Positions 5,327-19,504 of a DNA stretch of 29,010 bases are shown here, in pieces (the stretch's first letter is position 1; each line of letters starts with the position of its first letter). This stretch comes from a virus. The stretch covers positions 1 through 29,010 of IMG/VR virus record IMGVR_UViG_3300031622_000012. One strand, given 5' to 3'. The notes below the pieces were generated by a model, which searched no databases, had not been told where the DNA came from, and worked only from the letters and a program-made list of their open reading frames with translations. A program made the position numbers and the translations under genes.

Positions 5327-6563
5327 AGAAACACCTCAATGGAGACAATGGTTATCAGAAAAACTTAATCCTGCTCAGGCGTCTATAGCGTCTTTAGAGC
5401 CTTTTGCTAGTCCTGATAATATTGTAGAATACGAACAAGCTTATAGAGAAATTGAAATAGTTCATAGAGCTATAGACCTTGTTGTAAATGCTTGTGCAGA
5501 GATTCCTTTTATAGTTGAGGGTACAGGCCCTGCAAAAAAAGTAAATAAAATACTTAACCTAAAACCTAATCCTTTTGAGGATAGAGTACGCTTATTTAGA
5601 AGAGCATTTTTAGATTTTATGCTAGATGGTAATGCTTTCTTTTATTATGATGGTAATGATCTATATGTACTTCCTGCAAATGATGTAGAAGTAGTACCAG
5701 ATCCTAAAACTTTTGTATCACACTACAACTACTTAGTATCTAATCAACGTAGCTCAGATTTATTTGGATACGGTAAACATACTCGTAAGTCTGATGCAAT
5801 TAGGTTTGAAGCTCATGAGATAATTCATATTATGGCTGAGAATGATGAGTCTATATTTAGAGGAGTATCTAAGATTAAGTCTATTATTAGATTAATTGAG
5901 CTGTACTACTATATGATTAACTTTCAAAGACAGTTTTTTAAAAATAATGCTGTTCCAGGATTTGTTCTTACTACTGATAACATACTTTCTAAAAGAGTTA
6001 AAGAGCGCTTGCTAGAAGCTTGGAGATCTACTTATACAACTATATTTGATGGTGCTAGAAATCCCGCTATACTTGATGGTGGTTTAAAAATTGATAAGTT
6101 TTCCACCGTTAACTTCGATCAACTAGACTTTGAAGATTCTATTGAACGTATACAGCAAGATATGTCTAAAGCATTAGGTGTTCCTTATGTATTACTAAAA
6201 TCTGGTAATAACGCAAATATTGACGCTAACCAAAAATTATTTTATTTACATACTATCCTACCTATGCTAAGTCAGTTTTGTAGTGCTTTTTCTCACTTCT
6301 TTAACTCTGGAGTTGACATCCGACCAGACAAGTTATCAGTGCCCGCACTTCAGCCTGATAACAGAACTCAGGCTTTGTACTACTCTACTCTGGTAAATAC
6401 AGGAATCATAACCCCGAATGAGGCTCGTGAAGGATTAAGATTTGCAAAACTTGAAGGAAATGATAATATAAGAGTACCACAAAACATAACGGGTAGTGCT
6501 ACTGATGCGTCCCAAGGTGGTAGACCAGTAGATGATACTACTAGTGATCAAGGAAGTGATTAA
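5316..6563 (+). CDS. Portal protein, HK97 family
   Basis: The dodecameric portal forms the unique vertex through which DNA enters and leaves and to which terminase and neck bind. The 415-residue protein has the family signatures: REIEIVHRAIDLVVNACAEI near 46-65, a FRRAFLDFMLDGNAFFYY stem region near 94-111, VPGFVLTTDN, and the late DFEDSIERIQQDMSKALGVP helix followed by FYLHTILPML. Matches Phage_portal (PF04860) architecture. ATG 5316 has AGAAGG six bases upstream and overlaps the HNH gene by 11 bases. The C-terminus is a disordered Gly/Asp/Ser tail (PVDDTTSDQGSD). The stop overlaps the next ATG by one base (TAATG). Confidence 0.95.
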   Translation: MAIKETPQWRQWLSEKLNPAQASIASLEPFASPDNIVEYEQAYREIEIVHRAIDLVVNACAEIPFIVEGTGPAKKVNKILNLKPNPFEDRVRLFRRAFLDFMLDGNAFFYYDGNDLYVLPANDVEVVPDPKTFVSHYNYLVSNQRSSDLFGYGKHTRKSDAIRFEAHEIIHIMAENDESIFRGVSKIKSIIRLIELYYYMINFQRQFFKNNAVPGFVLTTDNILSKRVKERLLEAWRSTYTTIFDGARNPAILDGGLKIDKFSTVNFDQLDFEDSIERIQQDMSKALGVPYVLLKSGNNANIDANQKLFYLHTILPMLSQFCSAFSHFFNSGVDIRPDKLSVPALQPDNRTQALYYSTLVNTGIITPNEAREGLRFAKLEGNDNIRVPQNITGSATDASQGGRPVDDTTSDQGSD

Positions 6564-9286
6564 TGACAAATAAAACATTTTATTTAAACAGCTCCTTCGA
6601 AGCTAAATCCTATAAAAGAGGCAGTAAGTCTCTAAAGATTGCTGGATATGCTAATACTATTACTAAAGACCGTGCAGGTGACGTTGTTACCGCTGAAGCA
6701 TGGGCTAAAGGTGTAGAGAATTACAGAAAAAATCCAGTAATGCTTTATCAGCATAAACATGAATGTCCCATTGGGCGTATAGAAAAGATTGTTGTTGATA
6801 AAAAAGGTATTTATGTAGAAGGTGCCGTGAGTGAAGCTGCTGAAAAAATTCACGGGATACAAACACTTATAAATGATGGAGCTTTAAAAAGCTTTAGTGT
6901 AGGTTTCCGAGTAAAAGACGGCAAATATAATCGAAATGATGATTCTATGACTATTACTGAAGTAGAATTATTAGAGATATCTGTTGTAAGTGTACCTTGC
7001 AACCAAGATTCTCTATTTAGTATTCGTAAGGGTTTTGACTCGGACGATGACTACTCTAAATTTGTAAAAGAATTTAAAGAAACTGATCAAGAAGATCAAA
7101 AAGCAATGCGTAAGATTAAAGCCGGTATAACTGATATGACTGCTGGTCATTATCATACTGTCGAAGTTGACGAAACTGGTAACGGTGTAACAACCTACGC
7201 ATCGCATATGACTAATCACGCTCATAAAATTGTAAATGGTATATTATTAGAAGCCGAAGGGCATACACACGATATTACTATGGTAGGCGTGCCAATTCAT
7301 GATATGGAGGAAGATCTTTCTACTAATGAAAGGCCTTTATCTCCAACAGAGGAGGAAGCAATGAATACATCAAAACAAGATATAGTTGAAGAAGTAAAAA
7401 CAGACGAAGTTGATACTACTGAGCTAAAAGCTGATGAAGCTAGTTTTGAGGTAGAAGTTAAAGCTGAAGAGGAAGTAACCTCAGAAGATAAAACTAAAGA
7501 TACTACCATAGAAGCTACTAATTCAGAAGAAGTAGAAGCAGAAATTAAATCTGTAGATATTACTTCAGAAATTGAAGTCGAAAAAGAAGATGAGGAAGAG
7601 CATTTCGAAGTTCGTGACCCGAATGAAGTAATACCTTTTACTAATCTACTATCTGCAGACACTGCAGAACTTCAAAATGGGGACCTAGTAAATTACCAAG
7701 AAAAAATGTATAAGGTCCTTAATATCGCAACTGCCCAAAACCCAATATTTAAATTTTTAGAGATTGACGCAGAAGGCAAAGATTGTGATAATGTACTTAA
7801 TGTGAATGCAGAAGAAATTTCCCAAATCACTAAAACTGAACTTAATAAAGAAAATACTAGTGAAGACGCTATTGAAATCAAAGAGCTTCACGAAGATTCA
7901 ACAAAGGAGAACGACACCATGGCTGATCAAGTCGTAGAAACAATCGACCTTACAGAGGCAACTAAATCTGTAGAAGTCGAAACCACAAAAACAGTTAACA
8001 CTGTTTCTGAGCCTAGAGTTGCAAATCTGGTTGAAAAAACTGGTGAAGCAATTACTAAAAATGCAAATGCAGAGGACCTACAAGGTTACTCTTCAAAAGC
8101 AGACCAAGCTGAGTTAAAAGAACTACAGTTTGAGATCTCAAAGCACAAAGATGAGATCAAAGCATTACAGAATAGCAAAATGCTATATCAAGAGAACCAG
8201 AACCGTCAGGCTCAATTCTCAGAAAAAGATATGGCTAACGCTGTTCTTCTTTCTAAAATGCTAAACAAGCGTGACGTATTTGATACCAAATTTGGTCAAC
8301 GCATGAAAGCAGTTACAAATGTAGATCAATTCTTATCTAACTTTTCTTCCAACATCTATACAGAAATGGAACAACAGCTAGTTATCGCACCTATGTTTAA
8401 CCGTCTACCAGTAGACGCTAAGAACTTCCGCGTACCAGTTGCTGATGAAGATACAGATGGTGATGTAGCGATGTTCAAATCCGGTACTTATGCTACTGGT
8501 GTTGGAGACGTTACAAACGTACCAACTTCTAACCAAAACACTATCTCTTCTGTGGACTTTACCCCACATAAATTTATGGCTACAACACACTTAGCCAAAG
8601 ATGAAGAAGAAGATACAGTACTACCACTTCTAGATTTCTTACGTGCTGCTGCGACTCGTCGTTTAGCTCGTGCTATTGATAAATCTATTCTACGTGGTAC
8701 TGGTGCTCTAACAGGCTTTACTGCTTCCCCAACCAATGCAATTACTGTTGGTGTTGGTTACGCTTCTGTAATCAAAGGTGTTGCTGCTCTAGCTCGCGCT
8801 GCTTCTCTAGATGTTGCTACAGGTTCTGCAAACGATAAAGCTGATCCTTCAGATATCGCTGCTGCTCGTACAGCAATGGGTAAATATGGTCTACAACTAG
8901 GTAATGACCTAGTGTATGTTACATCTATCCAAGGTTATAACAACCTAGTAACAACTTCTGATTTCCAGACTGTTGATAAATTCGGTCCTAACGCTACTTA
9001 CCTAACAGGTTCTGTAGGCGCGGTATACGGTATTCCTATCGTAGTATCTGAGTTCATGGACAATGTTGGTACACAGAATAACGAAATTGGTTGTTTAATG
9101 TATAAGCCTGGCTTCATGATTGCTGAACGTCGCGGTATTGAGATTGAATCTGAGTACGAACCACGCCAGCAAGTAACTGCAATGTATATGTCAACTCGTT
9201 TTGACTTCCATGCGCTTACAACTGTTGCCTCAGCTGCTCTTAGTTCTGCTAAGTATGCTTACGCTGTTAACGTTAAAGCAGGTTAA
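6563..9286 (+). CDS. Tripartite prohead protease - scaffold - major capsid protein
   Basis: One frame of 907 codons holds three head functions. Residues 1-155 are an HK97-type (S78) prohead protease: LYQHKHECPIGRI with His64/66, LKSFSVGF with Ser112, and ELLEISVVSVPCN. Residues 185-240 carry three HxH motifs (196-198, 219-221, 234-236). Residues 250-452 are very acidic and Glu/Thr/Ser-rich, like a scaffold, with a small folded-looking patch near 354-430. From Met453 comes a coiled-coil delta-like region (to about 560) and an HK97-fold capsid protein to 907. Strong internal ribosome-binding sites precede Met267 (7361) and Met453 (7919), both in frame, so separate scaffold-capsid and capsid products are likely, plus proteolytic maturation. 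The capsid part uses CGN arginine codons, unlike its AGA-rich neighbours, consistent with high expression. A fused arrangement is known from Salmonella phage Gifsy-2. Confidence 0.93.
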   Translation: MTNKTFYLNSSFEAKSYKRGSKSLKIAGYANTITKDRAGDVVTAEAWAKGVENYRKNPVMLYQHKHECPIGRIEKIVVDKKGIYVEGAVSEAAEKIHGIQTLINDGALKSFSVGFRVKDGKYNRNDDSMTITEVELLEISVVSVPCNQDSLFSIRKGFDSDDDYSKFVKEFKETDQEDQKAMRKIKAGITDMTAGHYHTVEVDETGNGVTTYASHMTNHAHKIVNGILLEAEGHTHDITMVGVPIHDMEEDLSTNERPLSPTEEEAMNTSKQDIVEEVKTDEVDTTELKADEASFEVEVKAEEEVTSEDKTKDTTIEATNSEEVEAEIKSVDITSEIEVEKEDEEEHFEVRDPNEVIPFTNLLSADTAELQNGDLVNYQEKMYKVLNIATAQNPIFKFLEIDAEGKDCDNVLNVNAEEISQITKTELNKENTSEDAIEIKELHEDSTKENDTMADQVVETIDLTEATKSVEVETTKTVNTVSEPRVANLVEKTGEAITKNANAEDLQGYSSKADQAELKELQFEISKHKDEIKALQNSKMLYQENQNRQAQFSEKDMANAVLLSKMLNKRDVFDTKFGQRMKAVTNVDQFLSNFSSNIYTEMEQQLVIAPMFNRLPVDAKNFRVPVADEDTDGDVAMFKSGTYATGVGDVTNVPTSNQNTISSVDFTPHKFMATTHLAKDEEEDTVLPLLDFLRAAATRRLARAIDKSILRGTGALTGFTASPTNAITVGVGYASVIKGVAALARAASLDVATGSANDKADPSDIAAARTAMGKYGLQLGNDLVYVTSIQGYNNLVTTSDFQTVDKFGPNATYLTGSVGAVYGIPIVVSEFMDNVGTQNNEIGCLMYKPGFMIAERRGIEIESEYEPRQQVTAMYMSTRFDFHALTTVASAALSSAKYAYAVNVKAG
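7350..7363 (+). promoter_or_regulatory. Internal ribosome-binding site and in-frame start (scaffold-capsid)
   Basis: AGGAGG at 7350-7355 is a perfect Shine-Dalgarno, five bases before ATG 7361, which is in frame with the 907-codon gene. Translation from here gives a 641-residue protein beginning MNTSKQDIVEEV, right where the acidic scaffold-like part starts. The analogous case is lambda Nu3 starting inside C. Confidence 0.7.
7904..7921 (+). promoter_or_regulatory. Internal ribosome-binding site and in-frame start (major capsid protein)
   Basis: AAGGAG at 7904-7909 lies nine bases before ATG 7919. The start is in frame and sits exactly where the capsid module begins (MADQVVETIDLTEATKSVE), giving a 455-residue capsid precursor. 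Codon use also shifts within the following few hundred bases. Confidence 0.75.
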
Positions 9287-9312
9287 TTTATACTTGACAT
9301 CGTTGAGACTAC

Positions 9313-9345
9313 AGGGGGAGGCGGTCAAACGCCTCCCCTTATTTG
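9313..9345 (+). terminator. Rho-independent-like terminator after the capsid gene
   Basis: GGGGAGGCG (9315-9323) and CGCCTCCCC (9330-9338) form a perfect 9-bp GC-rich stem with a six-base loop (GTCAAA), extendable by a G-T and an A-T pair, followed by TTATTTGATATT. The T-run is imperfect, so partial readthrough into the neck genes is likely. It lies 27 bases after the capsid stop. Confidence 0.75.
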
Positions 9346-9363
9346 ATATTAAGGCAGGGAAAT

Positions 9364-10695
9364 ATGACAGAACGTTTTGAAGAAGATTTAGGCACATATA
9401 CATATATTGGTTTAGCACAGGTCAAAGACTATCTTAGTATATCTAGTACTGTTCAAGATGCTAGACTAGCTAATATTATTTCCTATGCTACTGGAGTAGT
9501 TGAACACTATATCGGACAAGAATTACTAGCTAACGATTATGTAGAGATTTTTGATGGAGGTAAAGCCTCCTTATTTACAAGTAGATTACCTTTAAATAAT
9601 GTATACCAAATAACAGAATTTAACGGCTCCGAACACCAAATACTAAATGATTCAACAACTATAGGTACTCCTGTAGTTAGTGCTGACGCTAGTGGTATAG
9701 ACTTTGCAGCTGTAGGAGCTAGCTTAACTACCCGCATAAAAAACTTTGGAACAGCAAGTTTAGAACTTAATAGCTCTAACTATGTAGTATCAAACTCTGT
9801 GCCTGATAACTTAAAAATGTACGAAGGCGACTTTACTATTGAAACTTTTGTTAGGATAGATGAGAACACTATTCAAGATAATGTAGTTTTTGCTATAAAT
9901 ACCGATGCCAGTAACTATATGAAGTTCAGTACTTCTAATCAGTATGGGCTAGCTTTTGAAGCAAATGTAGAAGGTACAGCTACTGTAGTGCGAGGTGCAA
10001 ATACTTCTATTGAAGCACAACAATTTTCTAAGCGCAAGTGGGCGCATATCGCTGTATCCCGTAAGCTAGATGATGAAAAACTGTATATGCACTATAACGG
10101 TAATGTTATAGCAGATGCTAGCTATAGTGAAGCTAACTTAACTTTTACTAGTAATGTGCAAATAGGTACTACCTTTAAAGGGTACATAGACGATATGAAA
10201 GTTACTAATAAAGCTGTGTACGGAGCTTCTAATTTTACTCCTCCATCAAACAGATCTAGACCTGATGATGATACAGTATTACTACTACATTTTGACGGTA
10301 AACAAGGCGACACTTCTATTATTGACGTACATGGAGCTATTAATGACTATACCTTCAGTAGAGATCATGGAGAGATAATTAGAGAAACCAATTCTTCTGC
10401 AGCTGTAAAAGGTGGCGTACAAAGAAGCTTCCCATCTATGACCCTATTAGGTCCTGCAGTATTTCAAGGATATCCTAGTGGCATAAAAGTTTCTTACCGT
10501 GCGGGTTACGAAAATAATACTGTACCTTTAGATATTCAAATGGCTACTTTAGATTTTATAAAACTAGTGTATAAACAAGATCAGGATAAAAAAGGTTTTA
10601 CTTTTGAAGGAGAAAGTGGTGATAAGTATCCTTTAGCTTCTAGTTTTCCTCCCCACATAAAACGTATTTTAGATATGTATAGGATTATTATGTAA
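9364..10695 (+). CDS. Head-tail connector (gp6-like) with inserted LamG domain
   Basis: ATG 9364 has CAGGGA just upstream and is preferred to an in-frame TTG at 9343 that lies against the terminator. Residues 11-90 (YTYIGLAQVKDYLSISST...ANIISYATGVVEHYIGQEL) and 335-443 (IKVSYRAGYEN...VPLDIQMATLDFIKLVY...HIKRILDMYR) are the two halves of an HK97 gp6-type connector. Between them, about 120-315, sits a LamG/concanavalin-like beta sandwich: SLELNSSNYV, DFTIETFVRID, KRKWAHIAVSR, LYMHYNGN, IGTTFKGYIDDMKVTNKAVY and DDDTVLLLHFDG. Connectors usually have about 100-200 residues, so the extra length is the insert. The ring would sit below the portal with the LamG domains facing outward, a probable glycan-binding or decorative collar (inference). 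Confidence 0.8.
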   Translation: MTERFEEDLGTYTYIGLAQVKDYLSISSTVQDARLANIISYATGVVEHYIGQELLANDYVEIFDGGKASLFTSRLPLNNVYQITEFNGSEHQILNDSTTIGTPVVSADASGIDFAAVGASLTTRIKNFGTASLELNSSNYVVSNSVPDNLKMYEGDFTIETFVRIDENTIQDNVVFAINTDASNYMKFSTSNQYGLAFEANVEGTATVVRGANTSIEAQQFSKRKWAHIAVSRKLDDEKLYMHYNGNVIADASYSEANLTFTSNVQIGTTFKGYIDDMKVTNKAVYGASNFTPPSNRSRPDDDTVLLLHFDGKQGDTSIIDVHGAINDYTFSRDHGEIIRETNSSAAVKGGVQRSFPSMTLLGPAVFQGYPSGIKVSYRAGYENNTVPLDIQMATLDFIKLVYKQDQDKKGFTFEGESGDKYPLASSFPPHIKRILDMYRIIM

Positions 10696-12020
10696 TGGCG
10701 AAAGCCTACCCTCTTGTTAACTCTACTATTATTAGTAAAGTAACTAGTTCAGATCCTAAGCTAAACGTAACAACTAAAGGGCCTTTAGCTTTGTCTAAGG
10801 CCCTTAAAACTTCTCAACAATTATATAGGGCTTCTAGAATAGATAGTAAGTATAAAGGTGTACTAACTTCTTTAGCAGGTAGACTAAACTCCCAGATAGA
10901 GCTAGCTATTGTTAAAGAGCTGGGAGGAGGTCAAATTAGTGCAGGTAAAGGTGGATTTTATCCTGATTTTTTTATAAATATAGATGGTTCAGAAGAGTTT
11001 AGAGAGCAAAAACTTGTAGCAACTAAAGAAACTGACACAGGCGTAGTCAGAAAAAGCAGAGTTGGACTAGCTGGGGGTAGTGGTATTACCTTAAAAACAG
11101 GTAAACAAGAGCTACTTACTGGGTTTAACCTATCAAGTGGTGAACCAGAAGCAGAAACTAAAGAAGTTAGAACTACTAGACTAGTAAGAAATTTAAGAAC
11201 AAATGCTAATAATCCAAGAGAACTACTAAGAATATTAGATGGTAGAAGTCCTGCTGCTAGAGCTATAAAAAATAGCTTAATAACTAAAGCTAGTGCAATT
11301 GATATACCTGTACAATTCAGAGGAGTATTACAGAATAGAACTATTAAGTTTACTTGGCCTCAAATAAAAAAATGCGTAGCTGCAGGCAAAATGAAAATAT
11401 TAATTAAGCTTGCTGATGATGAGACTGTTGAAACAATACAGCTAAACTTATACTTTACAGGGTCTACTATAACTAAAGCTTTAAATGATATGAATAGAGT
11501 AGTTATAAAACAACTAGACGGAGAATTAGGTACTACAGTACTTAAAGCTTTATCGGAAATGGCTACTCTACCTTCCGGTATTACTGCGGGAGAGGTACAG
11601 AAATGGCTAAAGAGTATGGGCTTTAATCATGCTCTTGCATATATTGCAGGATCTGCTATTATATCACGCGGCATAGCTAAGATAAAAAAACCTAAACTAC
11701 AAAAGAAACAAGCTACCAAGACTCAAGGATTTATTTCAGGTGTACAGTGGACAGCTTTAGTACAAAATCAACTACAGAAAACTATGAGAAAAGGTGGTCC
11801 ACCTATTAAACCTAATCTAACAGAGCGTTCTGGAAGATTCAGAGGTAGTGTGAGAGTTGTTCCAAATTATAGAAATAACTTAATAAGTTTTTACTATCTA
11901 CCTTTATATAGCCATTTAGAGAAATATGGTTATGATCCTGAACAACAAATAACCCGCAGTATACGAGAAGTAGCTCAAAAAGTATACGCAAGACAATTTA
12001 ACATACAAAGGATGGCCTAA
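10695..12020 (+). CDS. Putative neck / head-completion protein of unknown family
   Basis: The 441-residue protein overlaps the connector stop by one base (TAATG) and the next gene in the same way. It is basic, with no signal peptide or membrane span. Only the last 70 or so residues look familiar: LTERSGRFRGSVRVVPNYRNN...LPLYSHLEKYGYDPEQQITRSIREVAQKVYAR, which has the feel of HK97 gp10-type neck or tail-completion proteins that end with a beta hairpin and a C-terminal helix. Position, between the gp6-like connector and the probable tail terminator, supports a neck role. The first 370 residues have no clear match by eye; they include a central PVQFRGVLQNRTIKFTWPQ beta region and a helix-rich stretch. 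Other virion roles remain possible. Confidence 0.5.
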   Translation: MAKAYPLVNSTIISKVTSSDPKLNVTTKGPLALSKALKTSQQLYRASRIDSKYKGVLTSLAGRLNSQIELAIVKELGGGQISAGKGGFYPDFFINIDGSEEFREQKLVATKETDTGVVRKSRVGLAGGSGITLKTGKQELLTGFNLSSGEPEAETKEVRTTRLVRNLRTNANNPRELLRILDGRSPAARAIKNSLITKASAIDIPVQFRGVLQNRTIKFTWPQIKKCVAAGKMKILIKLADDETVETIQLNLYFTGSTITKALNDMNRVVIKQLDGELGTTVLKALSEMATLPSGITAGEVQKWLKSMGFNHALAYIAGSAIISRGIAKIKKPKLQKKQATKTQGFISGVQWTALVQNQLQKTMRKGGPPIKPNLTERSGRFRGSVRVVPNYRNNLISFYYLPLYSHLEKYGYDPEQQITRSIREVAQKVYARQFNIQRMA

Positions 12021-12475
12021 TGCCTGTAAATAGAAGAACAGAGATAATCCAATTTTTAGTAACTAGATTAAAAGAGATTGATGGGGGCGTTTCTCCTTAT
12101 GATAGTAACTATACTTTTGCATTAAATCTTTTTGATAATGTATTTCGTAAAATTAAATTTCTAGATGAAGTTAACGACTTTCCTGCCTTGTATGTCTCTG
12201 CGGGGACCGAAATCCGAGATTTTCAATCAGAAAATTTGACGGTAGCTACGTTAGACGTTATTATAAGGGGATACGTATATGGAGAAGATAATTCACAAAA
12301 TATATCTGATAATCTTGTTCAAGACGTCGAACACATTATATACGCATTAGGCGACAATCCTGATAAAGGCATATTAGATATAACAATAGATAATATTACT
12401 ATGGATGAGGGATTGGCTATACCATACGGTATAGCAGAAATTGAATTATCAATAGTCTATAGACTAGAAAACTAA
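12020..12475 (+). CDS. Probable tail terminator / tail completion protein
   Basis: The 151-residue product begins MPVNRRTEIIQFLVTRLKEID and later has FPALYVSAGTEIRDF, VATLDVIIRGYVYGED, and ends GIAEIELSIVYRLEN. An N-terminal helix, a central beta sheet with the FPALYV element and alternating strands at the end fit lambda gpU-type tail terminators, which cap the tail tube and join it to the neck. Length and gene order (immediately before the major tail protein) agree. Start and stop overlap or abut neighbours (TAATG at 12018-12022; 12 bases to the next gene). Family assignment is by pattern and position, not by a diagnostic motif. Confidence 0.62.
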   Translation: MPVNRRTEIIQFLVTRLKEIDGGVSPYDSNYTFALNLFDNVFRKIKFLDEVNDFPALYVSAGTEIRDFQSENLTVATLDVIIRGYVYGEDNSQNISDNLVQDVEHIIYALGDNPDKGILDITIDNITMDEGLAIPYGIAEIELSIVYRLEN

Positions 12476-12487
12476 GGAGAAAAAAAT

Positions 12488-13759
12488 ATGGCATCTCTTA
12501 ATCTACAAAGAAATTCCGAGGTATTCTTCTCTTCCGTTGATTTAAACGGAGGAGCAGCTGTTACCACTATGACACCTCAAAACACCTGGAAGCTAGAAGT
12601 GCTTGCTGGGTTTGCTGTGTCATCATCTGCCGCTACTCAGGACATAACCAGCTTAGAATCTGGAACTAGTCCTGATCGCTCGCAGCAAAGATTTAATACC
12701 GCAATTAACCCTGTTGACTGGAACTTACAAGTATACGTAAGACCTACGGGTGTACAAACAGGTGCTGCAGCTAATGGGACAACAGCTGCAACAAACAAAA
12801 CAGGCAACGTTAAGCCCGTAGCTGACTGGTTTATGTGGCAGTCACTTACTTCTAACACTAAACCTACTTCAGGCACTGCTGATCAGTCTATATGGACTAG
12901 CGGAGGTAAACTAGCTACAACTACTACTGCAGCTTCTACAGGAGCACACTCTTCTCGCTCTAACTTCTCTACTATGCCTGAAAATCATATGTACTTTAAA
13001 CTAGATAATGTTATTTATCAAGTACAAGCTTCTACTGTTAATGGCGCTGCTGTTGACGCAGGTATTGAAGAAATTGCTACTACTACATGGACCGGCTTTG
13101 GTACTACACTAACTGAACTTTCAGGAACTCCGCGCAATAATGCTATTTCTGTATTTGGTGGCATACTAAATAGCGGTAGTACCGTATTAGCTAACTCAAG
13201 CTCAGTTAATACTTCTGCTCCTTCCAGCTATCACCCTTTTGCTACTATGAATGTAGCGGGTGTTTCTGGTACTAACTCTTTCATTAAAAACCGCTTAAGT
13301 TCTATCGAATTCCATCATAAACCAACTGCAGGTGGATCTGATGTTAAGTACACCTTCCCAGTTACTGCTCTAAGCTTTGACTACAATAATAATGTTACTT
13401 ACTTAACTCCAGAAGAACTAGCATCACTTAACCAACCTATCGGTCAGTTTACTGGTACTCGTGCCGTAACTGGTTCTGCTACTATGTATCTACGTTCCGG
13501 TGATACTGAGTCAGCTACGTTCCTACGTAATATTGCTAATGATACTAGAACTTCATCTGCTGTAACTTCTAATGCAAACTTAATTATTGGCGGCGCTACT
13601 GCTCCCTATATGGCTTTTCAATTAGATGCATGTCAGTTTGAATTCCCTACACTAGCTGTTGAGGATGTTATCTCACTAAGTGTTAATTTTGTAGGACAAG
13701 AACCGACTGCAAGTAAAGGCGATGGTGGAGAGGTTACAATCTTCGCTGCTAAAGCTTAG
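12488..13759 (+). CDS. Major tail protein (tail tube)
   Basis: AAGGAG lies seven bases before ATG 12488. The 423-residue protein is Ser/Thr/Ala/Asn-rich and mostly beta in pattern, without membrane spans. It starts MASLNLQRNSEVFFSSVDL, has NTWKLEVLAGFAVSSSAATQDITSLESG and ends in VEDVISLSVNFVGQEPTASK, typical of tube-forming proteins whose last strands complete the hexameric ring. Position between the tail terminator and the chaperones with frameshift is the standard siphovirus place. It is longer than a single tube domain (about 150-250 residues), so a surface insertion is probable around residues 95-260. Codon use is mixed CGN/AGA, more optimised than for the genes around it, consistent with abundant expression. 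Confidence 0.82.
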   Translation: MASLNLQRNSEVFFSSVDLNGGAAVTTMTPQNTWKLEVLAGFAVSSSAATQDITSLESGTSPDRSQQRFNTAINPVDWNLQVYVRPTGVQTGAAANGTTAATNKTGNVKPVADWFMWQSLTSNTKPTSGTADQSIWTSGGKLATTTTAASTGAHSSRSNFSTMPENHMYFKLDNVIYQVQASTVNGAAVDAGIEEIATTTWTGFGTTLTELSGTPRNNAISVFGGILNSGSTVLANSSSVNTSAPSSYHPFATMNVAGVSGTNSFIKNRLSSIEFHHKPTAGGSDVKYTFPVTALSFDYNNNVTYLTPEELASLNQPIGQFTGTRAVTGSATMYLRSGDTESATFLRNIANDTRTSSAVTSNANLIIGGATAPYMAFQLDACQFEFPTLAVEDVISLSVNFVGQEPTASKGDGGEVTIFAAKA

Positions 13760-13780
13760 TACTTAAACTAACGATGTTTC

Positions 13781-13895
13781 TGAGGGGGAACATTAACTAT
13801 TAACCAGAGAGTGTCTATTCACTTGCAAATCAAGGTCCCCCCTCACCTTAGAAAGCAGATACGTGAATAGACACTCACCATAATCAAATGAGGGA
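13781..13895 (+). promoter_or_regulatory. Structured leader RNA before the tail chaperones (interleaved inverted repeats)
   Basis: GAGTGTCTATTCAC (13809-13822) and GTGAATAGACACTC (13863-13876) form a perfect 14-bp stem around a 40-base loop. The loop contains a smaller hairpin AAGGT/ACCTT (13832-13836/13845-13849) exposing CCCCCCTC. That C-run is complementary to TGAGGGGG upstream (13781-13788 with 13838-13845) and also to TGAGGG at 13889-13894, the Shine-Dalgarno of the next gene. No T-run follows, so it is not a classic terminator. The pairings are seen directly; a regulatory role is inference. Confidence 0.6.
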
Positions 13896-13900
13896 AAATC

Positions 13901-14332
13901 ATGAGTAAAATTAAAAATGCAATAGCCAAAGAAACGTCAACATGGGTAGAATTCCCGGATATTGAAGGTTTTGAGGTTAATTTACGTTTCTTAACCAGAG
14001 AAGATTTAGTTAAGATTAGAGGCCAAAGCCTACAATATAAATTCAATAAAAGAACCCGTCAACGTGAAGAAGAAGTAGATAGTGATAAGTTTTTAGAAGC
14101 TTACGCTGAAAAAGCTGTTGCCGATTGGAAAGGCTTAAAGTGTAAACACTTACCTCTATTGTTACCTGTTGACATTTCTTCTATGGACCCCGAAGAAAAT
14201 ATCGAATATAGTATAGAAGAAGCCTTAGAATTACTTAAAAATTCTACTATATTTGACCAGTTTGTTACTGATACTATGAATGATTTTGAGCAATTCTCTA
14301 AGAAAAAAGTAGAGACTAACTCAAAAAACTAA
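13901..14332 (+). CDS. Tail assembly chaperone (lambda G-like)
   Basis: ATG 13901 follows TGAGGGAAAATC. The 143-residue acidic, helical protein (MSKIKNAIAKETSTWVEF...GFEVNLRFLTREDLVKI...ALELLKNSTIFDQFVTDTM) has the profile of tail assembly chaperones: short beta start with a conserved LTRED-like turn, then helices. These proteins coat the tape measure protein before tube polymerisation and are absent from the mature tail. Its last codons TCA AAA AAC TAA form the slippery site that lets some ribosomes shift -1 into the next frame, giving a longer GT-type product. Position between major tail protein and tape measure is diagnostic. Confidence 0.85.
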   Translation: MSKIKNAIAKETSTWVEFPDIEGFEVNLRFLTREDLVKIRGQSLQYKFNKRTRQREEEVDSDKFLEAYAEKAVADWKGLKCKHLPLLLPVDISSMDPEENIEYSIEEALELLKNSTIFDQFVTDTMNDFEQFSKKKVETNSKN

Positions 14333-14366
14333 TAGACTACCTCCGTAGTTCTTTTAACGGAGGTGG
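14323..14366 (+). promoter_or_regulatory. Programmed -1 ribosomal frameshift signal
   Basis: A AAA AAC (14323-14329) is a canonical X XXY YYZ slippery heptamer in the zero frame, directly before the TAA stop. Seven bases later a stem forms between 14337-14346 and 14357-14366 (core ACCTCCGT/ACGGAGGT, 10 pairs including one G-T, 10-base loop). After slippage reading continues at CTA (14329), in the frame open to 14694. Confidence 0.9.
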
Positions 14367-14694
14367 AGTAGACGTAGAACAGTATCTACTAATGTGTGAG
14401 CAGATGGGTTGGGAGCCTGACGAAAATCAGATACCTATAGACCCTTCTACTTTATCAATAGAAGTTCAGCAAACTCTAGTACTACTAAACGCTCTACCAG
14501 ATAAATGGGAGGGTATGAGTGGTTCTTGGATGGGCAAAGACTATAGCGGTTTATCTGCGATTATGGATATATATGAAATTCAAGATCGTAAAGATGTTTT
14601 TGAGTTGTTAAAATTAGCAGAACAAGAACTAGGAAAATTCTATACCCAGAAGCAAAAAGAGCAAGCCTCTTTAAGCAAAGCAAAGAGAGCATAA
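14329..14694 (+). CDS. Tail assembly chaperone T extension, made by -1 frameshift
   Basis: The frame is open from 14320 and is best read as the continuation of the chaperone through the slip at 14323-14329: join 13901-14329 with 14329-14694, 264 residues in total. The extension (LIDYLRSSFNGGGVDVEQYLLMCEQMGWEPDENQ...ELLKLAEQELGKFYTQKQKEQ, shown in two parts) is helical with a basic coiled C-terminus. An ATG at 14392 exists but has no ribosome-binding site at a useful distance, so independent translation is unlikely. In lambda the T part of gpGT binds the tape measure and recruits the tube subunit; the same role is inferred here. The stop is four bases before the tape measure start. Confidence 0.85.
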   Translation, partial: LIDYLRSSFNGGGVDVEQYLLMCEQMGWEPDENQIPIDPSTLSIEVQQTLVLLNALPDKWEGMSGSWMGKDYSGLSAIMDIYEIQDRKDVFELLKLAEQELGKFYTQKQKEQASLSKAKRA

Positions 14695-14698
14695 GTAG

Positions 14699-17600
14699 TT
14701 GAGCATTATTAAAAACGTTGTAGATACAACATTTACATCCAAGGGAGCTGCCGGAGTTGCTAGCTCTACTGCGGGTGTAACTAAAGCACAAACACGACTG
14801 GGACAAGCAAGTGCTAGTTCCGGTCGTCAATTTTCTGCACAAGCTACTGGCATGGGCGGCTTAGTAGCTGCTTACGCTGGCGCTGCTGCTACCATCTTTG
14901 CTCTTGAAGCTGCTTACATGGCTCTATCTAAAGCTGCTCAGGCTGAAACTATCGAAAAAGGTACTAACTCTCTTGCTAGAAGTATAGGACAGAGTGGTCC
15001 CGCTATTATTAAATCACTAAGAGAAATTTCACAAGGCCAGCTTACTTTAGCTGAGACAGCAGCAACAGCTAACATCGCCCTTTCTGCTGGCTTTAATGCT
15101 TCCCAACTTGAAAAATTAACTACTATCGCTTTAGGAGCTTCTCGCGCTCTAGGTAGAGACTTTGAAGACGCACTTCAAAGGGTTACTAGAGGTGCGGCCA
15201 AGCTAGAGCCTGAACTATTAGACGAACTTGGTATTTTTACACGTATTGATCCTGCTATTAGAGCTTACGCCTCATCCTTAAATGTGTCTGCATCCAGCTT
15301 AACTCAGTTTGAAAGAAGACAAGCTTTTGTTAATGCTGTTATCGAGGAAGGTAATAAAAAGTTTAAATCTATAGATATATCAGCTTCTTCCTCCCAAAAA
15401 TCATTAGAACAACTAAGAGTACAAATTAGCGACTTAGGTACTGACTTTCTACAGCTAGTAGCAAGTGGTATTAAGCCTCTTGTTGACTTTTTAAATGATA
15501 ATGCCGGTGCTGCACTATTACTATTTGGTGGTATACTAGCTTTAGTATTTGGTAAATCTGCACAAGTTATATCAGGTTTTGCTGCTACTAGTTTAACTAG
15601 CTTAGGTGTTCTAGCTACTGGATGGGCTATGAAAGCTGAAAGCATGCGCGGTAATTTTGTAGCAGTAACTGCAGCGGCTAAAGCCTTTAATAAAGAAGTA
15701 GCTAGTCGTGGCGGTGTACTAGGCAAGGGGCTATTAAATGCTAAAGGCAAGCCAGCTAAGTTAGCAGGTACAGGGTCTTTTGTACAAGGATTAGATAGAA
15801 CTACGTCTTCTGCAGCTTCTTCGGCAAGAGCTGATTTTGCAGCTGGTGGCGTTAATTACGCTGGTAGAAAAAAAGCTATTGCCGATTTAACTAAGGCGAA
15901 GCTAGCCTTAACAGCTGCTCAAAGAGGCGAGAGCCTTGCTTTTAAAGACGCAACTAGGATAATTGCTGCTTATACTGTGGCTAATAAATCAGCTACAATA
16001 GGTACTAGATTATTTGCTGGTGCAGCTACAGTAGCTACGTTTGCTGCTAGAGGATTAACTGTCGCTATGGGTCTACTAAATGCTTCTCTTGGTATTATAT
16101 TTACTATAATTACTGTAGCTCAGATAGCTGGTACCTTTTTTGACGTAGATATATTAAAGAAAATAAAAGAAGGTATTCTTGGTATTAGAGAAGCTTCAGA
16201 AGATTTAGCGTCTGGTTTTCTTGGTGTTGCTGGAGGTAGCATAGGTGAAGATTTAGTAAATAGAGTAAGAGATTTAGGTGGCGAGACAGAAGGCCTAGCT
16301 AAGAGGTTAGTAAAAATGAGAGATAAGAATGCCACAATGACCATTATAGAACAAGGCCCGAGGGCTAATAACTATGGTCCAGACGCTTCAATAACCCCTC
16401 TACTTATAGCTACTACGGATTTAACTAAGAAGCAGGAAAAGCTAAATAGAGTAAGAGAAGGTGGCAACGAAAGCCAGATAAGACAACTACAGATAGAGAT
16501 AGCACTGTACACTGCTCTAGTATCAGCGCTAAGTTCTGTAAACGCAGGGTTTGAGTTACTTGTAGGACAGACTGCTAGGTTATCTGGTATACCTGCTAAC
16601 ACTATTTCTGATTTATTTAGCAGTGCTGACGGCATTATAAAGAATCTTGGTGATGACGTAGAGATTATGTATAATAAATTTCCAAAAGGTACGGATTTTA
16701 ATACTCTAACGGAAGCCCAACAAAATCTTATATTAGATGCCGTGCGTCTGCAGGATGCTTTAAACAACGCAGGAGATGGGTTATCTGACGCTAGTTTAGA
16801 CTCAGAAAAATTATCAGCTTTATTGTCTGGTGCAAGTACCGCTCTTAAAGAGCTAAAGAAGAATAGCTTAGCCTCTGCTCGTTCAATAAGAGAATTAATA
16901 ATACCAATGGATAATCTTAATGCTAGCCTTAGAGAATTACAAACAGCTGAAAAAGTGTTAGCTGGTATACAGAAAAACTTTAGCTCAGCTATTTCAGGAG
17001 TAGATACTACTGCTTTTTCTGGGTTAATTAGTATTACAGGTAAGATAGCTACAAACACTGAACAAATGACTGCATTTCAAAATGAATATCTTGCTAGTCT
17101 TATAAAAGCGGAAGGAATTGGAACAGACAGTGCGGGAGTAGCCTTAACAGATGCCGGAGTAGTTGCGCAAAAAGCTGCTCTTGGATTAATTATACAAAAT
17201 CTTCAAAAGACTAAACAAATTAGAAAAGAAGCTGATAAACAAGTAGAAGCTTTAGAGTCTCAACTAAGATTATTAAAACAGCAAAATGATATTACGTTTA
17301 AAATAGCTGAGAATACTAATTCAGCATCGAAACTATCTAGAGCCCAAGAAATGAGTAAGATAAACATAGACGGACTAAATATTGAGCTTGCAACTATGAA
17401 AGCTAGCTCAGCTTCTGATATACAACGCAATAAATTTCACACACAAAGAAAGTCTATTGAGTTAGAGATAGCTAGAATAACTAGTAATAGTAATAGAGCG
17501 GCTCAGATAGCTGCTTTAGAAGCTGTTAAAAATGCTCATAAAATATTACATGCTGAACAGGAATTAGTAGACTTGAGAAGATCTCCCGGTTCTACTATAG

Positions 17601-19504
17601 ATGATGATATTAGTAAACAACGCGCTAATATAGAACTACAGCGTAAAGTTTTACAAGATAACTTTAATAATGAAAAAGCTGCTATTATGCAAAAAGGTTC
17701 AAGTGCACAAAAAGAAGTTGATGCTCTAGAGAAGATTACCGCGATGCGCAGAAGCGATTTAGACCTTGAGATATCAGATAGACTTAATTTACAAGAGAAA
17801 GAACTTGAAATATTTGATGCAGAAACTGCTAATAGGAAACAAAAAATTCAAAACGATATAACTGCTGCAGCAAACCAAAAAGAAATAATTAGTTTAACTG
17901 CCAGCTTAGATAAAAATCGTATAAACGCTGCCGAAGCAAATAGCAAAGCTAACTTTGTAGCTATAGAAGCTCAAGTCGCTGCTATGGCGGTATTTCAAGA
18001 AAGTGTAAAAGGCTTAAATGTTGGTATAGAAGCTTTTGCTACTAGCGTAGCAGAAATATTAGGTATCACAATGAAGGGCACTCCAGAAGGCGAGATTGCT
18101 AGAGATAAAATAAAGGCAAGTGTGGCTAACTTACCTAATCAACTAGGAGACAACTTAGGGGCTACTCAAGCAGCTCTAGCTAAGCAACAAAAACTTCAAG
18201 GATCTATATTTAATGAACAGAGAAGTTCTATAGAAAAAATAGCCAAACTTAATACAGATAACGCTGATGCTACTATAAAGCATTTAAATAAGGTATTAGG
18301 GATTGCTGAAACTAATAGAATTCTTGAGAGAGTTACCTTACAAACAACTGCTACAGCTCAGGTACAAGCATTAATAAATGCAAAAATATTATTAAGGTTA
18401 GAACTAGAAAAAGCACGAGCTCAGGATGCTATAGGAGGTACAGATAGAACTTTAGAACTACTAACTTTACAAGCGCAGCTTGAGAATGATCTTACTAGCT
18501 TAAATAGTACAATTGCAGACTTAAACTATGAAACTAATACATGGAATCAAGCTTTAAATGCTACTAAAGAAGTTATAGGTAGTAGTGTTACTCAAGCACT
18601 AGTAGATTTAAATGCTAGTTTCTTCGATACCGCTAACGATGTTAGAACTTTTGGTGAGAAAATACAAGACTCTTTTGCTAATATCTTTAAGTCTATACAA
18701 GAAACATTCTTTGAAAAAACTATAGCTAAACCTATAGGAGACTTTGTAATGGACGCTGTTTCTCCTATATTCGGGAACTTAGCTAGTGAAGGTATTGATA
18801 ATGTAGTATTAAGAGATGGGGCTGTACCTGTTGTAATGTCTTCATCCGATGCAAATGGTGAAGATCCTGTAACAGCTTTAAAAGATAAAGCTGGTGGATT
18901 CTTTAGTACTGTATTTGAAAGAATAAAAGGCGGATTCAGCTCTATATTCGGTGAAGGAGGCTTCCTACCTAATCTAGCCAATTCAGTATTCGGTTCAGAC
19001 GGCCTACTTGCTCAAGGTATTAGAGGCTTAGGTAATATAGGATCAACTGTTTTTCAAGGATTAGGTAATATACTTGGCAGTTTAACTGGTGGCGGAGGTG
19101 ACTCAGGTGGTAATCTACTTGGCACTATATTTAAGGCAGGTGTTGGTTTATTTTCTGGTGGAACACCTGCTCCTGCTATGGCTGCGGGAGGTATAGTAAA
19201 ACATATGTCTCAAGGTGGCGGTGTTAATGGCCTGCGTGATAGAGTTCCTGCCTTACTAGAACCTGGAGAGTTTGTAATGCGCAAGCAAGCTGCTAAGTCA
19301 ATAGGTACTCCAGGATTACAAGCTATGAACTCTGGCGGTGGTGCTGGCGGTAATGTAGTAGTTAATATTAAGAATGAAGGAACTCCACAAGAAGCAACTG
19401 CGAGTGCTCCTAAGTTTGATGGAGAAAAGTTTGTTATCGATATAGTTACTAGAGACTTAGCAAATAACGGACCAATACGTAGATCAATGAGAGCAGGAGC
19501 TTAA
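14699..19504 (+). CDS. Tape measure protein
   Basis: The 1601-residue protein sets tail length and travels with DNA at infection. TTG 14699 is the only sensible start close to the preceding stop; it gives MSIIKNVVDTTFTSKGAAGV, and the next ATG would drop about 50 residues. Hydrophobic stretches lie near residues 50-66, 268-312 and 439-482, long helical coiled-coil segments run from about 840 to 1330, and the Gly-rich C-terminus contains AAGGIVKHMSQGG and LLEPGEFVMRKQAAKSIG, a hallmark of tape measure C-termini. At about 0.15 nm per residue the tail would be near 240 nm. A lytic domain is not visible. It directly follows the chaperones, as expected. Confidence 0.95.
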   Translation: MSIIKNVVDTTFTSKGAAGVASSTAGVTKAQTRLGQASASSGRQFSAQATGMGGLVAAYAGAAATIFALEAAYMALSKAAQAETIEKGTNSLARSIGQSGPAIIKSLREISQGQLTLAETAATANIALSAGFNASQLEKLTTIALGASRALGRDFEDALQRVTRGAAKLEPELLDELGIFTRIDPAIRAYASSLNVSASSLTQFERRQAFVNAVIEEGNKKFKSIDISASSSQKSLEQLRVQISDLGTDFLQLVASGIKPLVDFLNDNAGAALLLFGGILALVFGKSAQVISGFAATSLTSLGVLATGWAMKAESMRGNFVAVTAAAKAFNKEVASRGGVLGKGLLNAKGKPAKLAGTGSFVQGLDRTTSSAASSARADFAAGGVNYAGRKKAIADLTKAKLALTAAQRGESLAFKDATRIIAAYTVANKSATIGTRLFAGAATVATFAARGLTVAMGLLNASLGIIFTIITVAQIAGTFFDVDILKKIKEGILGIREASEDLASGFLGVAGGSIGEDLVNRVRDLGGETEGLAKRLVKMRDKNATMTIIEQGPRANNYGPDASITPLLIATTDLTKKQEKLNRVREGGNESQIRQLQIEIALYTALVSALSSVNAGFELLVGQTARLSGIPANTISDLFSSADGIIKNLGDDVEIMYNKFPKGTDFNTLTEAQQNLILDAVRLQDALNNAGDGLSDASLDSEKLSALLSGASTALKELKKNSLASARSIRELIIPMDNLNASLRELQTAEKVLAGIQKNFSSAISGVDTTAFSGLISITGKIATNTEQMTAFQNEYLASLIKAEGIGTDSAGVALTDAGVVAQKAALGLIIQNLQKTKQIRKEADKQVEALESQLRLLKQQNDITFKIAENTNSASKLSRAQEMSKINIDGLNIELATMKASSASDIQRNKFHTQRKSIELEIARITSNSNRAAQIAALEAVKNAHKILHAEQELVDLRRSPGSTIDDDISKQRANIELQRKVLQDNFNNEKAAIMQKGSSAQKEVDALEKITAMRRSDLDLEISDRLNLQEKELEIFDAETANRKQKIQNDITAAANQKEIISLTASLDKNRINAAEANSKANFVAIEAQVAAMAVFQESVKGLNVGIEAFATSVAEILGITMKGTPEGEIARDKIKASVANLPNQLGDNLGATQAALAKQQKLQGSIFNEQRSSIEKIAKLNTDNADATIKHLNKVLGIAETNRILERVTLQTTATAQVQALINAKILLRLELEKARAQDAIGGTDRTLELLTLQAQLENDLTSLNSTIADLNYETNTWNQALNATKEVIGSSVTQALVDLNASFFDTANDVRTFGEKIQDSFANIFKSIQETFFEKTIAKPIGDFVMDAVSPIFGNLASEGIDNVVLRDGAVPVVMSSSDANGEDPVTALKDKAGGFFSTVFERIKGGFSSIFGEGGFLPNLANSVFGSDGLLAQGIRGLGNIGSTVFQGLGNILGSLTGGGGDSGGNLLGTIFKAGVGLFSGGTPAPAMAAGGIVKHMSQGGGVNGLRDRVPALLEPGEFVMRKQAAKSIGTPGLQAMNSGGGAGGNVVVNIKNEGTPQEATASAPKFDGEKFVIDIVTRDLANNGPIRRSMRAGA

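What the first reader, a model, noticed from the sequence alone, without database searches (positions are those of the whole stretch)
13781..13895. Interleaved inverted repeats: possible pseudoknot or switch controlling chaperone translation
A perfect 14-bp stem (13809-13822/13863-13876) encloses a C-rich hairpin loop (CCCCCCTC). The loop can pair with TGAGGGGG upstream (8 bp) or with TGAGGG in the Shine-Dalgarno of the next gene (6 bp). The upstream copy looks like a decoy of the Shine-Dalgarno (TGAGGG..AA..AT in both). The order a-b-a'-b' is that of a pseudoknot. This lies between the abundant tube protein and low-level chaperones, where a drop in translation is needed.
Basis: partly seen in the sequence, partly recalled or inferred. 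Interest (0 to 1): 0.68.

Follow-up and report, generated by a model that had tools for sequence, protein, structure and literature searches.

The report
Conserved RNA pseudoknot between phage genes
Between the genes for the tail tube and a tail-assembly helper, a large group of uncultured T5-like phages carries a strongly conserved folded RNA in which one hairpin loop can pair with a nearby copy of the ribosome-binding sequence; the fold is well supported by matched mutations, but its job (most likely setting how much helper protein is made) is untested.

Summary
Every uncultured relative examined (85 distinct elements, tube protein identity down to about 51%) has the same element between the major tail (tube) gene and the first tail chaperone: hairpin H1 with loop UGAGGG, a U-rich linker, a long irregular hairpin (P1/P1b/P2) with apical loop CCCCUCA, then an unusual GAGGG(G) ribosome-binding site (RBS) and AUG. 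The two T5-like isolates inspected (tube 31-32%) lack it. P1 carries 42 compensatory double changes on the tube-gene tree; H1 (7) and the H1-loop/apical-loop pairing (4) also covary. UGAGGGG and CCCCUCA hardly vary, although flanking helices changed completely in remote clades. The third arm, apical loop with RBS, is conserved as complementarity (GAGGG(G) in 76 of 84 chaperone RBSs; 1 of 394 other ORFs) but does not covary, and geometry makes it strained. One copy per phage record; no Rfam match. Best reading: a new cis-acting mRNA element whose UGAGGGG strand pairs alternatively within H1 or with the apical loop (pseudoknot/kissing loop), tuning chaperone translation, perhaps coupled to ribosomes ending at the tube stop codon. 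The structure is well supported; the mechanism is inferred. Rivals: RNA processing/3'-end stabiliser, transcription attenuator.

The parts
12488..13759 (+). major tail (tube) protein gene; stop codon 13757-13759
   Evidence: phrog_3575 major tail protein, E 1e-44; T5-like, 25-27% identity to Demerecviridae isolates
13773..13794 (+). hairpin H1: GATGTTTC (13773-13780), hexaloop TGAGGG (13781-13786), GGAACATT (13787-13794)
   Evidence: compensatory changes in relatives; H1 arms swap test p < 2e-4
13781..13788 (+). pseudoknot/kissing 5' strand TGAGGGGG, overlapping the H1 loop and 3' arm
   Evidence: 8 bp with 13838-13845; TGAGGGG in 84 of 85 distinct elements
13795..13808 (+). U-rich linker ending in ACCAGA
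   Evidence: alignment; base composition
13809..13876 (+). long irregular hairpin: P1 13809-13822/13863-13876 (14 bp), P1b UGC 13824-13826/GCA 13855-13857, P2 AAGG 13832-13835/CCTT 13846-13849
   Evidence: P1 42 double compensatory branch events; consensus fold
13836..13845 (+). apical loop TCCCCCCTCA; CCCCTCA (13839-13845) pairs with TGAGGGG (13781-13787)
   Evidence: CCCCTCA in all 85 elements; covariation at pairs 8-10
13889..13894 (+). atypical RBS core TGAGGG of the chaperone gene, complementary to the apical loop
   Evidence: GAGGG(G) in 40 of 43 chaperone starts vs 1 of 394 other ORFs; 76 of 84 over all clades
13901..14332 (+). first tail assembly chaperone gene
   Evidence: phrog_313, E 7e-13

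Best explanation
This is a cis-acting structured RNA in the intergenic mRNA between the abundant tube protein and the low-level tail chaperone. SHOWN by comparative evidence: two hairpins, H1 and the long P1/P1b/P2 hairpin, and a pairing between the H1 loop strand (UGAGGGG...) and the apical loop (CCCCUCA), all acting on the coding-strand RNA. The UGAGGGG strand can pair in H1 or with the apical loop, and compensatory changes support both. INFERRED: it sets chaperone translation. In the state I consider most likely to be 'on', the apical loop is occupied by UGAGGGG, as pseudoknot or kissing loop, and the GAGGG(G) RBS is free. When UGAGGGG is tied up in H1, the apical loop, which mimics the anti-Shine-Dalgarno, is free to pair with the RBS and lower initiation. 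The tube stop codon lies only 7-23 nt upstream, so a terminating ribosome can open H1 and let the pseudoknot form, coupling chaperone synthesis to tube synthesis at a damped level.
For: Same element in every tube relative of about 51% identity or more that reaches far enough to be read. P1: 42 double WC-to-WC branch events over 13 pairs, against a mean of 0.06 per non-pair. H1: 7 double events and pair 6-21 beyond every tree-null value; pseudoknot pair 8: 4 double, 6 one-sided kept, 2 broken. RNAalifold finds H1, P1, P1b and P2 without help. P1+P1b+P2+PK: 96.4% of cells paired, against 42-50% when slid. PK alone: 12 double-change cells, shuffle mean 3.7; H1: 13, mean 3.1. G.U far exceeds A.C in P1 (50:9) and H1 (73:14), so the coding-strand RNA is what is selected. 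UGAGGGG 84/85 and CCCCUCA 85/85 stay fixed even in clades where H1 and P1 have entirely new sequences (L427, L428, L430; L447 with a weaker H1). The fixed trio H1 loop, apical loop and RBS is what one expects if the RBS is held by 16S rRNA and the loop must match it. Atypical RBS. Stop codon to UGAGGG: 7-23 nt, median 12. One copy per record in six records of 48-113 kb.
Against: RBS-apical loop pairing shows no covariation (0 double, 22 broken; swap p 0.94). The 7-13 nt between P1 and GAGG hardly reach the tip of a hairpin of about 24 layers (my estimate, 65-70 A) unless it bends. In the window the stop codon is 21 nt from TGAGGG, at the edge of a terminating ribosome's footprint. Some members have a very weak H1 (L211 none, L179, L447). 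In L427 and L428 the loop-loop match is exactly 7 bp without the extension that would displace H1, so H1 and the loop pairing might coexist there as a kissing complex. MI-APC E-values against a tree null pass 0.05 for only 3 pairs (two P1, one H1), not for the pseudoknot. No expression data.
Confidence: 0.45

Rival explanations
1. RNA processing or stability element: the long irregular hairpin is cut (for example by RNase III) or blocks 3'-5' exonucleases, separating or protecting abundant tube mRNA from the chaperone mRNA. The loop-loop pairing only makes the fold compact and resistant.
For: Long interrupted double-stranded hairpin of RNase III-site size; position directly behind a highly expressed gene; the capsid gene in the same operon is also followed by a conserved hairpin.
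Against: Does not explain the near-invariance of UGAGGGG/CCCCUCA or the atypical GAGGG(G) RBS.
Confidence: 0.25
2. Transcription attenuator: P1 with the U-rich stretch behind it is a leaky intrinsic terminator that lowers transcription of the chaperone and later genes; H1 tunes it.
For: 53 of 69 elements have at least 5 T in 8 bases right after P1; L447 and L294 have GC-rich stem plus a 7-T run; the capsid gene is followed by a terminator-like hairpin.
Against: The window and near relatives have no T-run (ACCATAATC). The 3' spacer is no richer in T than the 5' linker (57% vs 56%). The tape-measure protein and the rest of the tail lie downstream. The terminator scan does not report the site.
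Confidence: 0.17
3. Plain insulator or standby structure: it keeps tube ribosomes from running on or reinitiating, or the SD-like H1 loop tethers post-termination 30S subunits near the chaperone start; no switching.
For: Stop codon very close to H1; P1 ends 7-13 nt before the RBS; the H1 loop carries GAGG, complementary to 16S rRNA.
Against: Two overlapping pairings of one strand are both maintained by compensatory change, more than an insulator needs.
Confidence: 0.1
4. Recoding signal: the pseudoknot stimulates readthrough or frameshifting at the end of the tube gene, giving an extended tube protein.
For: A pseudoknot a few nt behind a stop codon is a classical recoding geometry (own knowledge).
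Against: Downstream frames close after a median of 3, 7 and 1 codons; the distance varies 7-23 nt; no conserved coding extension.
Confidence: 0.02

Closest known systems
Termination-coupled pseudoknot control of repZ (IncI-alpha/IncB plasmids), from own knowledge; no descriptive paper was found in the held library
   Same: A hairpin loop pairs with a distant strand to form a pseudoknot close to an RBS; the pairing strand can be hidden in another hairpin that sits next to an upstream ORF's stop codon.
   Different: No leader peptide, no antisense RNA known here; the upstream ORF is a structural gene; the RBS itself is a third copy of the pairing strand.
Kissing-loop complexes (TAR-TAR*, RNAI-RNAII; own knowledge)
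   Same: A hexaloop fully complementary to another hairpin loop.
   Different: Intramolecular, conserved in sequence and matched to the downstream RBS.
SD-sequestering translational pseudoknots (preQ1-II, SAM-II, ribosomal protein leaders; own knowledge)
   Same: Pseudoknot directly upstream of or at an RBS.
   Different: No ligand site known; no Rfam match; RBS not part of a covarying helix.
RNase III sites between T7 genes (own knowledge)
   Same: Intergenic irregular long hairpin between phage genes.
   Different: Here with conserved loop-loop pairing and sequence-invariant loops.

Membership tests
Conserved structured cis-acting RNA (general) | compensatory base changes in relatives | tested here: met
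Conserved structured cis-acting RNA (general) | fixed position relative to the controlled gene | tested here: met
   always tube stop to chaperone start; GAGG 11 nt before ATG in 46 of 69
H-type pseudoknot / kissing loop | apical loop pairs with a strand outside its stem in a-b-a'-b' order | tested here: met
   7-13 contiguous pairs in every one of the distinct elements parsed; swap p 0.0024, without correction for kinship
SD-sequestering translational switch | RBS pairs with a switch strand, with covariation | tested here: not met
   complementarity conserved, no covariation; the core GAGG/CCUC pairs never vary and so are uninformative
SD-sequestering translational switch | element changes translation of the downstream gene | not testable with these tools
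   needs reporter assays
Intrinsic terminator | GC-rich stem followed at once by a U-tract | tested here: inconclusive
   U-tract in many relatives, absent in the window; no enrichment over the 5' linker
Known Rfam family, riboswitch or ribozyme | match at the gathering score | tested here: not met
   no match in the window or in six relatives; weak miRNA hits only at E > 1
Stop-codon recoding signal | conserved open frame after the stop | tested here: not met
RNase III processing site | cleavage in the irregular duplex | not testable with these tools
   needs RNA ends data

The most novel reading that the evidence does not exclude
A new class of phage mRNA switch in which three short sequences (H1 loop, apical loop, RBS) form an SD / anti-SD-mimic / SD-decoy triangle locked in sequence by the ribosome's own anti-SD, so that translation termination on the tube gene sets chaperone output and thereby tail-protein stoichiometry.
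Probability: 0.25. Interest if true: 0.8.

Novelty: new variant of a known kind. Interest (0 to 1): 0.62.

Why it matters
How tailed phages make a great excess of tube protein over tail chaperones from one operon is known mainly for the chaperone frameshift. A conserved, covariation-supported RNA exactly at the tube-chaperone boundary of a large uncultured T5-like lineage makes the other half of that ratio directly testable, and adds a sequence-invariant SD/anti-SD-mimic pseudoknot to the repertoire of cis-acting mRNA structures.

Tried and rejected
Rfam at gathering score and at lax E-value: nothing. DNA similarity in phage isolates: none; isolates have only 25-27% identical tube proteins, and the two inspected have a minor tail gene 10-13 nt after the tube gene and no element. 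Bacterial genomes: among the pattern hits inspected in full (those with a stem of 8 bp or more) the one true element was on a contig with tube sequence at its end that looks like a misjoined phage/bacterial contig. A hidden leader ORF using UGAGGGG as RBS: start codons follow in only 10 of 85. Recoding at the tube stop: frames closed. RBS x apical loop covariation: none. DNA-level function (cruciform): judged unlikely because G.U is tolerated far more than A.C. Literature searches for an earlier description found none in the held library.

Full report
CONTEXT. The window is part of a late structural operon of an uncultured T5-like siphophage: capsid (6563-9286), tail terminator (12020-12475), major tail/tube protein (12488-13759), tail chaperones (13901-14332 and 14392-14694) and tape measure (14699-19504). 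The nearest isolates are Demerecviridae with 25-27% tube identity and about 32% capsid identity. Genes are tightly packed; the 141-nt gap between tube and chaperone is exceptional.

OBSERVATION. One arm was missed: the upstream TGAGGG is itself the hexaloop of a hairpin H1 (13773-13794).

RELATIVES. 80 viral contig loci with 74-100% tube identity all carry a homologous element where the contig reaches far enough. A DNA pattern built from the element finds 111 stretches in IMG/VR; those read lie behind a tube gene, apart from two chance matches. In these last clades nearly all letters differ: H1 is UUAGCUAG-UUGAGGGG-CUAGUUAA (L427), P1 is GGCGCUUACYG/CRGUAAGCGCC (L427, L428), yet the architecture, UGAGGGG, CCCCUCA and a GAGG RBS stay. 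In all, 85 distinct elements; the only tube homologues without one are the two T5-like isolates (31-32% identity). Each of six records of 48-113 kb has exactly one copy, with zero matches for the reversed control pattern.

STRUCTURE. RNAalifold on 29 diverse sequences, with no structure imposed, returns H1, P1, P1b and P2; 17 of 27 pairs have compensatory double changes. On 69 distinct sequences and the tube-gene tree, P1 has 42 double WC-to-WC events, 39 one-sided changes that keep pairing and 8 breaks over 13 pairs; random column pairs average 0.06 double events. The upstream strand pairs with the apical loop over 7-13 bp in every element parsed. The first seven pairs are nearly invariant; pair 8 toggles between G-C, A-U and G-U with 4 double events; pairs 8-10 hold 12 double-change cells against a shuffle mean of 3.7. 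H1 has 13 against 3.1. Swapping arms between relatives weakens P1, H1 and the pseudoknot (p < 2e-4, < 2e-4, 0.0024; kinship not removed), but not the RBS-loop match (p 0.94). Under a stricter tree-based null for mutual information only two P1 pairs and one H1 pair pass E 0.05, so the pseudoknot rests on near-universal pairing, the parsimony counts and the swap test together. G.U pairs are tolerated far more often than A.C mismatches in P1 and H1, so the functional molecule is most likely RNA of the coding strand.

TWO STATES OR ONE. The UGAGGGG strand is both the H1 loop/3' arm and the pseudoknot strand. In the main clade the complementarity runs on into the H1 3' arm (GGGGGAAC/GUUCCCCC), so full pseudoknot and full H1 exclude each other; in L427/L428 the match is exactly UGAGGGG/CCCCUCA, which fits a kissing complex of intact hairpins. 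By my rough geometry (about 24 stacked layers, 65-70 A, for the long hairpin) the 16-26 nt between UGAGGGG and P1 allow the pseudoknot comfortably; a straight kissing complex with intact H1 would need a bend.

THE RBS ARM. The chaperone RBS is GAGGGG in 63, GAGGG in 13, GAGG in 7 and AAGGGG in 1 of 84 elements. Of 394 other ORFs from the same contigs one has GAGGG; the usual types are AGGAG and AAGG (ORFs taken mechanically, 192 of them without a recognised RBS). The extra Gs do not improve pairing with 16S rRNA (-8.2 vs -9.0 kcal/mol for AAGGAG) but do match the apical loop. Against this stand the absent covariation and the short spacer of 7-13 nt. My reading: because GAGG of an RBS is fixed by 16S rRNA, a loop that must match it, and an H1 loop that must match that loop, are fixed too; this explains why UGAGGGG and CCCCUCA stay constant while the neighbouring helices change. 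It is an inference.

FUNCTION. Most likely translational setting of the chaperone, with coupling through ribosomes that terminate 7-23 nt (median 12) upstream of UGAGGG and can open H1; in the window the distance is 21 nt, at the margin. The rival that fits nearly as well is a processing or 3'-stabilising element behind the abundant tube mRNA. An intrinsic terminator is possible in some clades (L447, L294) but the window has no U-tract, and U-richness is equal in the linkers on both sides of the hairpin. Recoding at the tube stop is unlikely.

NOVELTY. No Rfam family and no earlier description found in the searches made; absence from those sources is not proof. It works like known translational pseudoknots; membership in an SD-sequestering class is not established, because the defining covariation with the RBS was tested and not found.

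Noticed in passing
window 14323-14392: Classical -1 frameshift site A AAA AAC directly before the stop of the first chaperone, followed by a stem TACCTCCGT..ACGGAGGT; an in-frame AAAAAAC heptamer is present in 99 of 99 distinct chaperone genes of relatives. The second chaperone is probably made as a fusion.
   Followed up: partly
window 9310-9345: The capsid gene is followed by a conserved GC-rich hairpin (GGGGGAGGCG..CGCCTCCCC) plus T-rich tail, terminator-like, in the 26 distinct intergenic regions compared, with changing loops. Possibly the capsid counterpart of the tube element.
   Followed up: partly
L037, L056, L074, L011, L018, L080 between capsid hairpin and next gene: Many relatives carry a small, often very acidic ORF (roughly 80-120 aa) between the capsid gene and the next gene that the window lacks; perhaps a head decoration protein.
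   Followed up: no
L361 (JALQUZ010000068.1): An Ilumatobacteraceae MAG contig begins with the phage tube gene end and most of the RNA element and then switches to apparently bacterial sequence just after P1; probably a chimeric assembly.
   Followed up: partly
window 6563-9286: Protease and major capsid protein appear fused in one 907-aa ORF (phrog_80 at 10-331, phrog_10 at 443-884), while T5-like isolates annotate them as two genes.
   Followed up: no
window 9343-10695: 450-aa ORF whose C-terminus matches a head-tail adaptor family while its middle matches baseplate wedge families.
   Followed up: no
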